64,000 nt of DNA from Paracoccaceae bacterium (GTDB lineage Bacteria > Pseudomonadota > Alphaproteobacteria > Rhodobacterales > Rhodobacteraceae): NCBI GenBank assembly GCA_020628545.1, contig JAHDEX010000012.1, positions 17,393 to 81,392 of the forward strand. Reading direction: 5' to 3'. The first letter of the stretch is position 1. Each line of letters opens with the position of its first letter. The notes beneath the pieces were generated by a model. That model was not told the origin of the DNA. It ran no database searches and was given only the letters and a program-made list of their open reading frames with translations. Below are positions 2,971 through 11,253 of this stretch, piece after piece. Both the position numbers and the translations under genes were made by a program.

Positions 2971-3329
2971 GCCATTGGCGACATCAATTCGACCTCATCA
3001 CCACTTTCCACTGCCGTGTAAAAGCACGTCCGCCGGTTCGTATGACACGCAGGTCCCTCCTGCCGCACGATCACCAGCAAACAATCCCGGTCGCAATCGA
3101 CACGCATGCTTACAAGTGTTTGTGTGTGCCCGCTGCTTTCGCCTTTCACCCAAAAGGCCTGACGCGACCGCGACCAGTAGGTGACTTTACCGCTTGTGAG
3201 TGTCTGTTCAACGGCTTCAGCGTTCATCCACGCCATCATCAGAACTTCATGGCTATCGGCATCCTGGGCAATCGCGGGGATCAGCCCTGCGTCGTTGTAG
3301 ACCAGTGTCGATGGATCAAATGTCATCAC
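2967..3329 (-). CDS. hisI: Phosphoribosyl-AMP cyclohydrolase
   Basis: HisI opens the adenine ring of phosphoribosyl-AMP, the third step of histidine synthesis; it is a cytoplasmic zinc/magnesium enzyme. The 120-residue product carries the family motifs WMNAEAV, YWSRSR, WVKGESSGH, the metal-binding D-C-D-D pattern (RVDCDRDC) and the C-terminal CHTNRRTCFY. Length is typical of the stand-alone form, not fused to HisE. Two consecutive ATGs (3329 and 3326) can serve as start. No other his gene is near, so it is a lone pathway member convergent with gluQ. Confidence 0.95.
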   Translation of the reverse strand: MMTFDPSTLVYNDAGLIPAIAQDADSHEVLMMAWMNAEAVEQTLTSGKVTYWSRSRQAFWVKGESSGHTQTLVSMRVDCDRDCLLVIVRQEGPACHTNRRTCFYTAVESGDEVELMSPMA

Positions 3330-3393
3330 GGACGCCTTTGCTTCTGTTGCCGTCCCGCCTATCTATGGAAGGACATCAGAAAGGGCAAACCGC

Positions 3394-3840
3394 GTGACTG
3401 CTGAAACCGATATGATCAAGCTCTACTCCGGGCGTATTCTGGCGCTTGCAGCGGACATGCCCCATACGACACGGTTGGATGCGCCCGATGCGACGGTCAA
3501 GAAACGCTCGCCGCTGTGTGGGTCGACTGTCACCGTGGATGTGCGACTTAGCGACGGTGTGATCAGTGCCTTTGGTCAGGACGTGAAAGCCTGCGCGCTT
3601 GGTCAGGCGGCAGCATCTGTCGTCGGCTCTGCGCTTGTCGGCCTGTCTGAGGCGCAAGTGCAAGAAGGGCGCGACCAGTTGCATGCGATGCTGACAGCGG
3701 GCGGTCCGGTCCCTGCGGCGCCCTTTGAAGGGCTAGAGGTTCTGGAACCTGCGAAGGACTATAAGAACCGCCATGCGTCGATCCTGCTTGCGTTTGATGC
3801 TACACTTGCGGCGATCGCCGAGGCGAAGACTGCAGCGTAA
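3394..3840 (+). CDS. Iron-sulfur cluster assembly scaffold protein, NifU/IscU N-terminal type
   Basis: The 148-residue protein matches the U-type scaffold fold: an N-terminal helix (MIKLYSGRIL), then SPLCGSTVTVDV, carrying the first ligand cysteine in the usual PxCGD-like place, and KACALGQAAASV, carrying the second. The third canonical cysteine (normally in the C-terminal helix) is not obvious; the C-terminal part reads YKNRHASILLAFDA. This divergent form is common beside hisI in Rhodobacterales. The start is GTG 3394, preceded by AAGGG; ATG 3412 is an alternative that removes six residues. It may assist Fe-S or other metal assembly, but a lost ligand leaves the exact role open. Confidence 0.75.
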   Translation: MTAETDMIKLYSGRILALAADMPHTTRLDAPDATVKKRSPLCGSTVTVDVRLSDGVISAFGQDVKACALGQAAASVVGSALVGLSEAQVQEGRDQLHAMLTAGGPVPAAPFEGLEVLEPAKDYKNRHASILLAFDATLAAIAEAKTAA

Positions 3841-3850
3841 CCCCCTACCC

Positions 3851-3893
3851 CAAAAGAAAAAAGCGCCGCACATCCCGGGCAGGATGGCGGCGC
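3851..3893 (-). terminator. Rho-independent terminator of the small membrane protein gene
   Basis: GCGCCGC (3863-3869) pairs with GCGGCGC (3887-3893) and CATCC (3871-3875) with GGATG (3882-3886), leaving a six-base loop. On the minus strand the hairpin is followed by a T-rich tract (complement of 3851-3862). Orientation points to the minus-strand gene at 4024-4146; no such tract follows on the plus strand. Confidence 0.75.
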
Positions 3894-4023
3894 AAAGGTA
3901 GATCGTACCACAGTGCAATTTCCAATTGGTCAGGCGAGCGGCCAACCATTCAGGACTTGGGACAGAGGGACATCTGGATACCGTGGGCAGGTTCAGACGG
4001 CACCGGGGTACGATCCAGGCAGG

Positions 4024-4146
4024 TTAGACCATCGCAGGCAACGACAGACCAACAAAAAGAATAACACCCAAAGCGACAACACCCAGCGCATCCATCAGGA
4101 TCGTGTCACTGCTGCGGACCCAGGCAATCTTCAGATCTTTGGCCAT
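4024..4146 (-). CDS. 40-residue single-span membrane protein, probably SOS-regulated
   Basis: This reading frame encodes MAKDLKIAWVRSSDTIL followed by a hydrophobic helix (about residues 19-38, rich in Leu, Val, Gly) and ends in PAMV. A strong ribosome-binding site, GAGGAG, lies eight bases before the ATG, and a clear terminator lies downstream at 3851-3893, so it is a complete transcription unit. The upstream DNA carries a GAAC-N7-GAAC box, the alphaproteobacterial LexA motif. A tiny inner-membrane protein under LexA recalls SidA, the Caulobacter SOS division inhibitor, but I see no sequence identity and infer only size, topology and regulation. Its short N-terminus is amphipathic and positively charged. 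Confidence 0.72.
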   Translation of the reverse strand: MAKDLKIAWVRSSDTILMDALGVVALGVILFVGLSLPAMV

Positions 4147-4224
4147 TTGAACGCTCCTCAATGCGGTGTGTTGTCGTTTTGTTCTGTTGCCACTTTGTTC
4201 TCATATCCATGGGTGTTCTGTAAA

Positions 4225-4259
4225 GAACTTTTTAAGAACATTTGTGAACTTTTTGGAAC
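4225..4259 (-). promoter_or_regulatory. LexA-type operator with four phased GAAC repeats
   Basis: GAAC occurs at 4225-4228, 4236-4239, 4246-4249 and 4256-4259. The first pair is spaced by exactly seven bases, reading GTTC-N7-GTTC on the minus strand, which is the established LexA box of alphaproteobacteria. The other gaps are six bases, so the array repeats about once per helical turn. Three GTTC words lie nearby at 4181, 4197 and 4215. The site is 79 bases upstream of the 40-residue membrane protein and beyond the recG stop, so it serves the small gene. Confidence 0.65.
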
Positions 4260-4266
4260 GTCCGCC

Positions 4267-8582
<4,316 letters not shown>

Positions 8583-8774: not shown

Positions 8775-9488
8775 TTATGCCCCAATCGCCATGCGTTCCG
8801 CGTTTGTGCCAGGTTCCGGGTCGCGCAGGACGTAGCCGCGCCCCCATACTGTCTCGATATGGTTTTCGCCGTCCGTGGCCTGGCTGAGCTTCTTGCGTAG
8901 TTTGCAGATAAAGACGTCGATGATCTTGAGTTCTGGTTCGTCCATGCCGCCGTAAAGATGGTTCAGGAACATCTCTTTCGTCAGCGTTGTCCCTTTTCGC
9001 AGGCTCAACAGTTCCAACATCTGATATTCTTTGCCGGTCAGATGGACGGTGTGTCCGCCGACATCGACGGTCTTGGCGTCAAGGTTCACCGAAATGCGGC
9101 CCGTCTTGATAATCGATTGCGCGTGTCCTTTTGAGCGTCGGATGATCGCGTGAATGCGAGCAATTAGCTCTTCCCGGTGAAACGGTTTTGTCAGGTAGTC
9201 GTCCGCACCAAAGCCAAAGCCTTTGATTTTCGCCTCGGTGCTATCGTCGCCCGTCAGGATCAGGATAGGCGTTTCAATCCGGCTCAGCCGCAGTTGCCGC
9301 AATACATCGTGACCGTTCATGTCCGGCAACGACAGATCGAGAAGGATCAGGTCATAATCATACAATTTGGCAAGATCGATCCCCTCTTCCCCCAAGTCCG
9401 TCGCGTAGACGTTCAGGTTCGCGTGGGTCAACATCAACTCGATGCTTTTGGATGTCGTGGGATCGTCTTCAACTAGTAGTACGCGCAT
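8775..9488 (-). CDS. ctrA: Cell-cycle response regulator CtrA
   Basis: CtrA is the OmpR-type master regulator that in alphaproteobacteria controls motility, cell division and, in Rhodobacterales, gene transfer agents and quorum-linked traits. The 237-residue product has the receiver acidic pocket (VEDD) and phospho-acceptor Asp51 in LILLDLSLP, the conserved Lys in YLTKPF, and a winged-helix output domain with the CtrA-specific [18 protein letters not shown]. The C-terminal tail is AERMAIGA. A CtrA-like TTAA-N7-TTAC box lies 49 bases upstream. sciP, encoding its inhibitor, is immediately upstream, and chpT, its phosphate donor, lies 20 kb away in the window. Confidence 0.97.
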
Positions 9489-10017: not shown

Positions 10018-11193
10018 ATGGCGCGTGATGGAGTCATCAACTCACTTGGTTTTGCCAAACCCCCGTCTGAAACGCGGGTGGTTGTGGCGATGTCTGGTGG
10101 TGTCGACAGCTCGGTTGTGGCGGCGCAATTGGCATCGGAAGGATACGATGTCGTTGGCGTGACCCTTCAGCTTTACGATCACGGCGCGGCCCTTGCGAAG
10201 AAGGGCGCCTGCTGTGCCGGGCGTGATATTCACGACGCGCGGCGGGTTGCTGAGGAAATGGGTTTTCCGCATTACGTGCTCGACTATGAAAACACGTTTC
10301 GGGAAGCCGTGATTGATGAGTTCGCGGAAAGCTACTTGGCAGGTGCCACGCCGGTCCCTTGTATCCGGTGTAATGAGCGGGTGAAGTTCAAAGACCTGCT
10401 GGAGACAGCGCGCGACCTCGACGCGGATTGTATGGCAACGGGCCACTACATTCAGCGCAAGATGGGCGAATCAGGGGCTGAACTTCATACGGCCGGCGAT
10501 CCCACCCGCGACCAATCCTATTTCCTGTTCTCAACAACGGCAGAACAGCTTGATTATCTGCGCTTTCCCCTTGGGCATCTGAAAAGCAAAGCTGAAACGC
10601 GCGAACTTGCCGCCAAATTCGGTCTCAGCGTTGCGGACAAGCCGGACAGTCAGGACATCTGTTTCGTACCAAACGGCGATTACGCCGCTGTCATTGAAAA
10701 GTTGCGCCCCGGCGCCGCAGAACCCGGTTCCATCGTTGATGTCAACGGACAGGTTCTGGGGGAGCATAAAGGTGTGATCCACTACACGATTGGCCAGCGA
10801 CGGGGTCTCGGGATCGGTGGGCTTTCGACGCCTCTTTATGTGGTCAAACTTGATGTTGACCGCAAAGAAGTGATCGTCGGCCCTAAAGCCCTTCTGGCAA
10901 CCCGTGAGGTGCCCATTAAAGAGGTGAACTGGCTCGGCGATAGTGACTTTCTTGCTGGAGGCGAGCGTCGCATCGCCGTAAAGGTGCGTTCAACTCGTCC
11001 GCCGACCGAAGCCGTGTTGCACCCGATTTCGGAGACGGAAGCCGAAGTAATTCTGTCGGAAGCAGAAGAAGGCGTTTCTCCGGGTCAGGCCTGCGTGTTC
11101 TATGATCGTGACAGTACGCGTGTTCTGGGAGGTGGCTGGATCACGGGGCAGCGAAATGCGCGCACTCTGGGACATCCTAACCATCGCGCATAG
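10018..11193 (+). CDS. mnmA: tRNA-specific 2-thiouridylase MnmA
   Basis: MnmA adds sulfur to uridine 34 of the Lys, Glu and Gln tRNAs, activating the base with ATP and taking sulfur from a persulfide relay. The 391-residue enzyme shows the PP-loop SGGVDSS (residues 26-32), the catalytic cysteine region [11 protein letters not shown], and the partner cysteine in SQDICFVP. Normal length for alphaproteobacteria. TTAA overlaps the bases just before the ATG, and no strong ribosome-binding site is seen. It is divergent from sciP, with 135 bases between them. Confidence 0.95.
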
Positions 11194-11253
11194 GGCTTTG
11201 ACACTGCGCACGTTGATGTGTTTATCTGAACAAAGCATGAACATGAGGCCCGT

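What the first reader, a model, noticed from the sequence alone, without database searches (positions are those of the whole stretch)
4024..4259. SOS-regulated 40-residue membrane protein with its own operator and terminator
A complete small gene (GAGGAG site, 40 codons, terminator) lies downstream of an array of four GAAC words spaced 6-7 bases, including one exact GAAC-N7-GAAC, the alphaproteobacterial LexA box. The product is one membrane helix with a short charged head. SidA, an SOS-induced division inhibitor of Caulobacter, has the same size class, topology and regulation but no visible sequence similarity. This may be an unnamed SOS division or stress peptide of the roseobacters.
Basis: partly seen in the sequence, partly recalled or inferred. 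Interest (0 to 1): 0.82.

Follow-up and report, generated by a model that had tools for sequence, protein, structure and literature searches.

The report
SOS-type membrane peptide with structured RNA
Most bacteria of the Rhodobacter/Roseobacter family carry, next to the DNA-repair gene recG, an unnamed gene for a 40-residue membrane peptide whose promoter looks like a DNA-damage switch and whose message usually ends in a folded RNA that the RNA-family library does not hold.

Summary
A protein profile finds it in 179 of 196 genomes of the order (84 of 87 genera), all in one family. It is under purifying selection (median dN/dS 0.14 and 0.12 in two genera) and lies behind recG in 108 of 110 loci. 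GTTC-N7-GTTC precedes it in 108 of 110; a second, imperfect box (GAAC-N7-CAAC) over the -10 region is conserved too. LexA control is likely, not proven: the boxes score like held-out lexA and uvrA boxes but poorly against lexA and recA alone, and one half-site always departs from the usual form.

Between stop codon and terminator (window 3857-4023, minus strand) is a structured RNA. A covariance model finds it in 82 of 100 loci; its stems covary; its loops repeat a C-rich word; Rfam 15 does not identify it. The window's own copy is diverged (E 0.43). Best reading: an SOS-type dual-output transcript, a SidA-like membrane peptide plus a regulatory RNA. What either acts on is inferred.

The parts
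4246..4259 (-). two further GTTC half-sites (4256-4259, 4246-4249), 6-base gaps; the inner one (N6 before the N7 box) is conserved
   Evidence: N6+N7 triple in 98 of 110 loci
4225..4239 (-). GTTC-N7-GTTC, LexA-type box abutting the -35 element
   Evidence: present in 108 of 110 loci
4219..4224 (-). TTTACA, probable -35 element
   Evidence: logo of 108 promoters, TTTAC 85-100% per position; role inferred
4186..4200 (-). GAAC-N7-CAAC, second LexA-like box with one mismatch, over the probable -10/start region
   Evidence: GAAC-N7-NAAC in 107 of 108 promoters, CAAC in 97; 0.9% in mono-shuffled segments
4154..4159 (-). GAGGAG ribosome-binding site
4024..4146 (-). 40-codon ORF, one membrane helix
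3857..4023 (-). structured RNA forming the 3' part of the transcript; closing stem 4007-4015 with 3901-3909 in this (diverged) copy
   Evidence: for this copy; for the family; R1 and R2 do not find this copy significantly
3857..3893 (-). terminator: GC-rich hairpin 3863-3893 followed by a T-run
4267..6357 (-). recG, upstream neighbour on the same strand
   Evidence: Pfam RecG domains; upstream in 108 of 110 loci
3394..3840 (+). NifU_N-like gene, convergent neighbour
   Evidence: PF01592 E 0.0096, below its cut-off; convergent in 81 of 110 loci

Best explanation
The locus is a self-contained, probably LexA-repressed transcription unit of the Rhodobacteraceae with two products. Damage leads to LexA cleavage, a promoter flanked by two LexA-type boxes is freed, and a transcript of roughly 350 nt is made. 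Its 5' half is translated into a 40-residue peptide with a short basic head and one membrane helix; by analogy with SidA it most likely slows division, or another membrane process, while DNA is repaired. Its 3' half folds into a stable RNA with a closing stem, hairpins that display C-rich YUGYCY words, and a terminator; most likely it acts as a regulatory RNA, by pairing with G-rich sites or by binding a protein. Shown by comparison: selected ORF, conserved promoter, conserved RNA structure, linkage to recG. Inferred: LexA as binder, transcript length, peptide target, action of the RNA.
For: ORF. Promoter; comparison boxes. RNA: terminal stem of 8 or more pairs in 100 of 103 cores folded alone against 32% of shuffles; R1 70 of 100 loci, R2 82 of 100 with best control E 0.45 and 0.082; 204 double-change cells against 40.3, and on a sequence-only alignment 14 against 3.5; YUGYCY 4.53 per RNA against 1.10 shuffled, 73% unpaired against 41% overall; G-U 51 against A-C 16, which favours this strand.
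Against: No expression data. Matrix from lexA and recA alone does not favour LexA; AT-rich planted boxes reach the observed score range. G150, with no LexA found, keeps the boxes. The 51-row sequence alignment supported only the terminator hairpin. The reversed word YCYGUY is enriched too, 2.25 against 0.82, so part of the word count is C/U-richness. The window's own RNA copy is not significant to either model, and 18 of 100 loci gave no R2 match at E 0.01.
Confidence: 0.5

Rival explanations
1. Single-product gene: an SOS-type membrane peptide whose folded 3' UTR only protects and terminates its mRNA and has no action of its own.
For: The RNA starts right behind the stop codon and ends in the terminator; R2 found it at no second place in the window or, at E 0.01, in the control loci.
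Against: Repeated unpaired C-rich words and compensatory change through the whole core are more than a terminator needs.
Confidence: 0.25
2. The promoter is read by another direct-repeat regulator, not LexA, for example an OmpR-type activator: words at 10-11-base steps end exactly at the -35 element.
For: 10/10/11-base steps; half-site letter not seen in 61 known LexA boxes at that half; the 22-base promoter form is nearly private to this gene; boxes kept in G150 without detectable LexA.
Against: Exact N7 in 108 of 110; score like held-out lexA and uvrA boxes; nine of 20 other triples, picked by eye, stand before lexA; in G150 imuA and a umuD-like gene keep boxes too; CenR's motif is TGA-N8-TGA.
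Confidence: 0.18
3. TisB-like SOS-induced toxin: the peptide depolarises the membrane and favours dormancy, with the RNA tuning its translation.
For: Size class, one helix, SOS-type promoter; TisB is recalled, not fetched.
Against: One match per genome at one syntenic place in nearly all genomes listed, unlike patchy toxin modules (recalled). No search for an antisense antitoxin was made.
Confidence: 0.12

Closest known systems
SidA (and DidA) of Caulobacter crescentus
   Same: Very small inner-membrane protein, SOS-type control for SidA; LexA consensus GTTCN7GTTC in Caulobacter (PMC4211646, PMC12700426; passages)
   Different: SidA has 29 residues and binds FtsW; no SidA sequence was compared here; about 97% of Caulobacter SOS promoters have a single box; no 3' RNA was mentioned in the passages seen
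Pos19 and UdsC of Rhodobacter sphaeroides (small ORF and regulatory RNA in one transcript)
   Same: Small coding RNA (Pos19) or sRNA cut from the 3' UTR of a small hypothetical mRNA (UdsC from RSP_7527) (PMC5036791, PMC9779115; passages)
   Different: Pos19 is RpoE-dependent, between cxp and fadB, not found outside R. sphaeroides; UdsC is 67 nt and RpoHII-dependent. I could not place RSP_7527 relative to recG
sRNAs with repeated C-rich loops (CcsR of Rhodobacter, sX13 of Xanthomonas)
   Same: Repeated unpaired C-rich words (recalled, not read)
   Different: No family match: the only Rfam hit overlapping this RNA was sX13 in L123 at E 0.91, 24.2 bits against a gathering score of 50, taken as chance

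Membership tests
LexA (SOS) regulon | LexA box (GTTC-N7-GTTC) in the promoter | tested here: met
   108 of 110 loci
LexA (SOS) regulon | Box resembles those of lexA, recA, uvrA, imuA of the same family | tested here: inconclusive
   four-gene matrix: median 18.4, held-out lexA 19.5, uvrA 18.0, recA 22.3, imuA 24.3; two-gene matrix: 12.6 against 24.3
LexA (SOS) regulon | Induced by damage, dependent on RecA and LexA | not testable with these tools
   no expression data
SidA-type SOS division inhibitors | Very small single-pass membrane protein | tested here: met
   one helix 2-39, mean pLDDT 87; hydropathy
SidA-type SOS division inhibitors | Blocks division through FtsW/FtsN | not testable with these tools
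   needs bench work
SidA-type SOS division inhibitors | Sequence similarity to SidA | not tested
   no SidA sequence was fetched
Known protein family (Pfam, NCBIfam, PHROGs) | Profile match | tested here: not met
   none for P0001 in Pfam and NCBIfam; of 29 members each weak family matched one only, best E 0.0089
Known Rfam 15 RNA family | Match at the RNA's place reaching the gathering score | tested here: not met
   window 3000-5000 and 25 distinct loci, permissive threshold; only sX13 in L123, E 0.91, overlaps
Structured RNA | Covariation beyond controls | tested here: met
   fitted alignment; sequence-only alignment, 14 rows

The most novel reading that the evidence does not exclude
The Rhodobacteraceae share an unnamed core SOS gene: one LexA-controlled message of about 350 nt carries a membrane checkpoint peptide and, in its 3' half, a new multi-loop regulatory RNA whose repeated C-rich loops act in trans, so that DNA damage both pauses division and rewires gene expression from a single transcript.
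Probability: 0.35. Interest if true: 0.92.

Novelty: new variant of a known kind. Interest (0 to 1): 0.82.

Why it matters
SOS division inhibitors are known in a few models and do not share sequence (general knowledge). This gene was found in 179 of 196 genomes of the order at E 0.01, at a fixed place, and no library searched here (Pfam, NCBIfam, PHROGs, Rfam) identifies its protein or RNA. It gives roseobacter and Rhodobacter laboratories a direct test for a checkpoint peptide, a new RNA structure with covariation support, and an apparent case of an SOS-controlled peptide and structured RNA in one transcript.

Tried and rejected
CenR as binder: published motif is TGA-N8-TGA. Relatives outside the family: five weak class-level matches (E 8.7e-4 to 0.0086) lie inside frames of 427-969 aa and were taken as noise. 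Mobile origin: no match in phage records; one plasmid-collection match, a 1.58-Mb Pseudorhodobacter replicon. First LexA matrix argued against LexA; it was broadened afterwards with uvrA and imuA, and both results are reported. Natural knock-out test in G150 was not decisive: no LexA by domain or tblastn, yet boxes persist here, before imuA and before a umuD-like gene; only 400 kb of its 2.58-Mb contig was read. Sequence-only alignment of 51 RNAs gave only the terminator, 12 pairs. PDB profile search gave designed TIM barrels at E 0.0092 or worse over residues 3-22, taken as chance. A generic hairpin scan of my own found a terminator in only 46 of 110 loci; its rules were too narrow, since it missed the window's.

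Literature: ten searches listed no paper that I recognised as describing this gene or RNA. Prior detection is not excluded: two conserved Paracoccus sRNAs (intergenic 134, 84 nt; intergenic 100, 137 nt) share context with R. sphaeroides sRNAs (PMC5107571, section 15 read), and RSP_7517 and RSP_7527 are small R. sphaeroides mRNAs of about 240 and 300 nt (PMC6238624, passages); I could not place any of them. Supplements, figures and subscription papers were not available.

Rows dropped: of 145 loci found, 110 were studied (30 given, 80 fetched); 35 were not fetched, mostly the weakest. The N7 box is absent in L160 and in L176 (N-masked, 75-aa frame); recG was not seen in L021 and L025. Of 130 loci 119 gave an RNA with a recognisable end, 111 a trimmed core. 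R1 and R2 were run on 100 of the 110 loci. dN/dS used pairs of equal length only (28 of 36 in the second genus). The 20 triples were picked by eye. For imuA the box was sought anywhere in 2.8 kb upstream of ImuB; its distance to imuA was not measured, and G006 was left out.

Full report
Observation. The minus-strand frame 4146..4024 encodes 40 residues behind GAGGAG. Four GTTC words stand upstream, one pair with the exact 7-base gap. In this window alone the exact pair is not above chance (4 found, 2.52 expected), so the case rests on comparison.

Protein. A single-sequence search found the frame in 145 of 295 family genomes at E 0.01. A profile of 29 orthologues (A1) found it in 179 of 196 genomes of the order, 84 of 87 genera, all in the same family; the 17 misses fall in four genera. 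Of 385 class genomes 10 matched: five in the family, five weak stretches inside long frames. M1, S12, T15, D19, G22, L34 and P37 are invariant in A1. Of 110 orthologues 89 have exactly 40 residues, 20 have 36-42 and one has 75. In 14 genomes of the own genus and 9 loci of a second genus, pN is below pS in every pair counted (91 of 91; 28 of 28 pairs of equal length) and median dN/dS is 0.14 and 0.12. The product is a short basic head (median three K/R in the first 20) and one hydrophobic helix with an almost uncharged end; AlphaFold gives one helix, 2-39, mean pLDDT 87. No Pfam or NCBIfam family fits the window's protein; of the 29 rows no weak family matched more than one.

Place. recG lies upstream on the same strand in 108 of 110 loci; the NifU_N-like gene converges in 81 of 110. 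Phage records gave no match, plasmid records one.

Promoter. Of 110 loci 108 keep GTTC-N7-GTTC within 220 bases upstream and 98 keep a third word six bases before it. The logo of 108 promoters reads GTTC-N6-GTTC-N7-GTTC-TTTAC; where measured, 18 bases then separate TTTAC from GAACA in 92 of 104. There a second LexA-like box begins: GAAC-N7-NAAC in 107 of 108 (CAAC 97, TAAC 5, GAAC 3, AAAC 2), against 0.9% of mono-shuffled segments. Of these, 113 have the ORF within 360 bases downstream and 114 have recG upstream; four of the five exceptions are cut by the edge of the held DNA on one side, and one, L318, is unrelated (the first 80). L389, cut downstream, also shows no recG. The element is nearly private to this gene.

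Is it LexA? Known SOS promoters from family genomes served as reference: lexA box in 16 of 16, recA 15 of 16, uvrA 15 of 16, and a box in the 2.8 kb upstream of ImuB in 15 of 15 fetched. Two tests disagree. A matrix from lexA and recA scores the small gene's box at median 12.6, against 24.3 for left-out references, 3.8 and 8.9 for boxes planted in GC-rich and AT-rich random sequence. A matrix from all four genes, made after that result, scores it 18.4, like left-out lexA (19.5) and uvrA (18.0), below recA (22.3) and imuA (24.3); 97% exceed the 95% point of GC-rich planted boxes but only 2% that of AT-rich ones. The consistent deviation is A before the promoter-proximal GTTC: 98% here, 0 of 61 references at that half-site, 4 of 61 at the other, but present at the same half-site in lexA of L194 and L211. 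Of 20 other triples picked by eye, nine lie before lexA, six are this gene and five are neither, by my reading. LexA was found in 275 of 290 family genomes. G150, near-complete and without detectable LexA, keeps the box here and also before imuA and a umuD-like gene, so some reader of the box may remain there; this is neutral. Caulobacter work gives GTTCN7GTTC as the LexA consensus and one box in about 97% of SOS promoters (PMC12700426, passages). The text of the in-silico LexA study of Dinoroseobacter does not contain recG (PMC6473078, passages; its table was not available). I put LexA control at about 0.8.

The RNA. The region between stop codon and terminator is alike in same-genus genomes and the pattern runs through the family. 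Folded alone, 100 of 103 cores close with a stem of eight or more pairs between their ends (shuffled 32%), the window's copy with 17. Fold energy has median z -4.72 for the full RNA (104 of 107 below -2) and -2.92 for the core (84 of 103). R1, a covariance model of 14 rows, found 70 of 100 loci at E 0.01, training rows included, and nothing below E 0.45 in 413 kb of other loci. R2, from those 70, found 82 of 100, best control E 0.082, and 61 of 80 loci fetched by promoter pattern, some of them the same genomes. On the 70-row alignment 18 of 19 pairs change on both sides, 204 such cells against 40.3+-6.4, covariation score 0.460 against 0.158. That alignment is fitted to the structure, so I also counted the 14-row sequence-only alignment, from whose RNAalifold fold I took the 19 pairs: 8 pairs, 14 cells against 3.5+-1.5, 0 of 500 shuffles. 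RNAalifold on the 70 rows predicted 15 pairs, 14 of them pairs of the model. A 51-row sequence alignment supported only the terminator. G-U outnumber A-C 51 to 16, as expected if this strand is the RNA. YUGYCY occurs 4.53 times per RNA (1.10 shuffled), 73% unpaired (41% overall); the reversed word is also enriched, 2.25 against 0.82; CUGUCCC occurs 1.21 times (0.04 shuffled). Rfam 15 does not identify it in window 3000-5000 or in 25 distinct loci; the only overlapping hit is sX13 in L123, E 0.91, far below its gathering score. The window's copy keeps the closing stem and some of the words but has drifted: best E at its place 6.6 with R1 and 0.43 with R2.

Mechanism. The simplest account is a damage-induced message with two outputs. 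SidA, 29 residues, interacts with FtsW, and filamentation of a Caulobacter lexA mutant depends on it (PMC4211646, PMC12700426; passages). Whether this peptide does so is untested. The RNA shows repeated unpaired C-rich words, which suggests pairing to G-rich sites or a protein partner. R. sphaeroides LexA is said to activate as well as repress recA (recalled, not read), which could fit words upstream of the -35 element.

Estimates by step: selected, translated peptide 0.97; conserved structured RNA on this strand 0.95; LexA control 0.8; division inhibition 0.4; RNA acting in trans 0.5.

Noticed in passing
window 11228-11242 (minus strand): Another exact GTTC-N7-GTTC (GTTCATGCTTTGTTC), just beyond the end of a tRNA-thiouridylase-like ORF at 10018-11193 (named by eye); one of four in the window, where 2.5 are expected.
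   Followed up: no
window 8775-9488 (minus strand): A response-regulator ORF that looks like CtrA by eye lies close by, behind a ligA-like ORF (6354-8507) and recG.
   Followed up: no
L192-L211: GTTC-N6-GTTC-N7-GTTC triples also stand before lexA itself in nine of the 20 loci picked, so a third half-site may be part of some LexA operators in this family.
   Followed up: partly
G150 (L295, L422, L432): A near-complete family genome without detectable LexA keeps LexA-type boxes before this gene, imuA and a umuD-like gene; another reader of the box may exist.
   Followed up: partly
order search, genera g577, g24, g583, g102: The 17 of 196 genomes without the peptide fall in four genera: candidate losses or divergence.
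   Followed up: no
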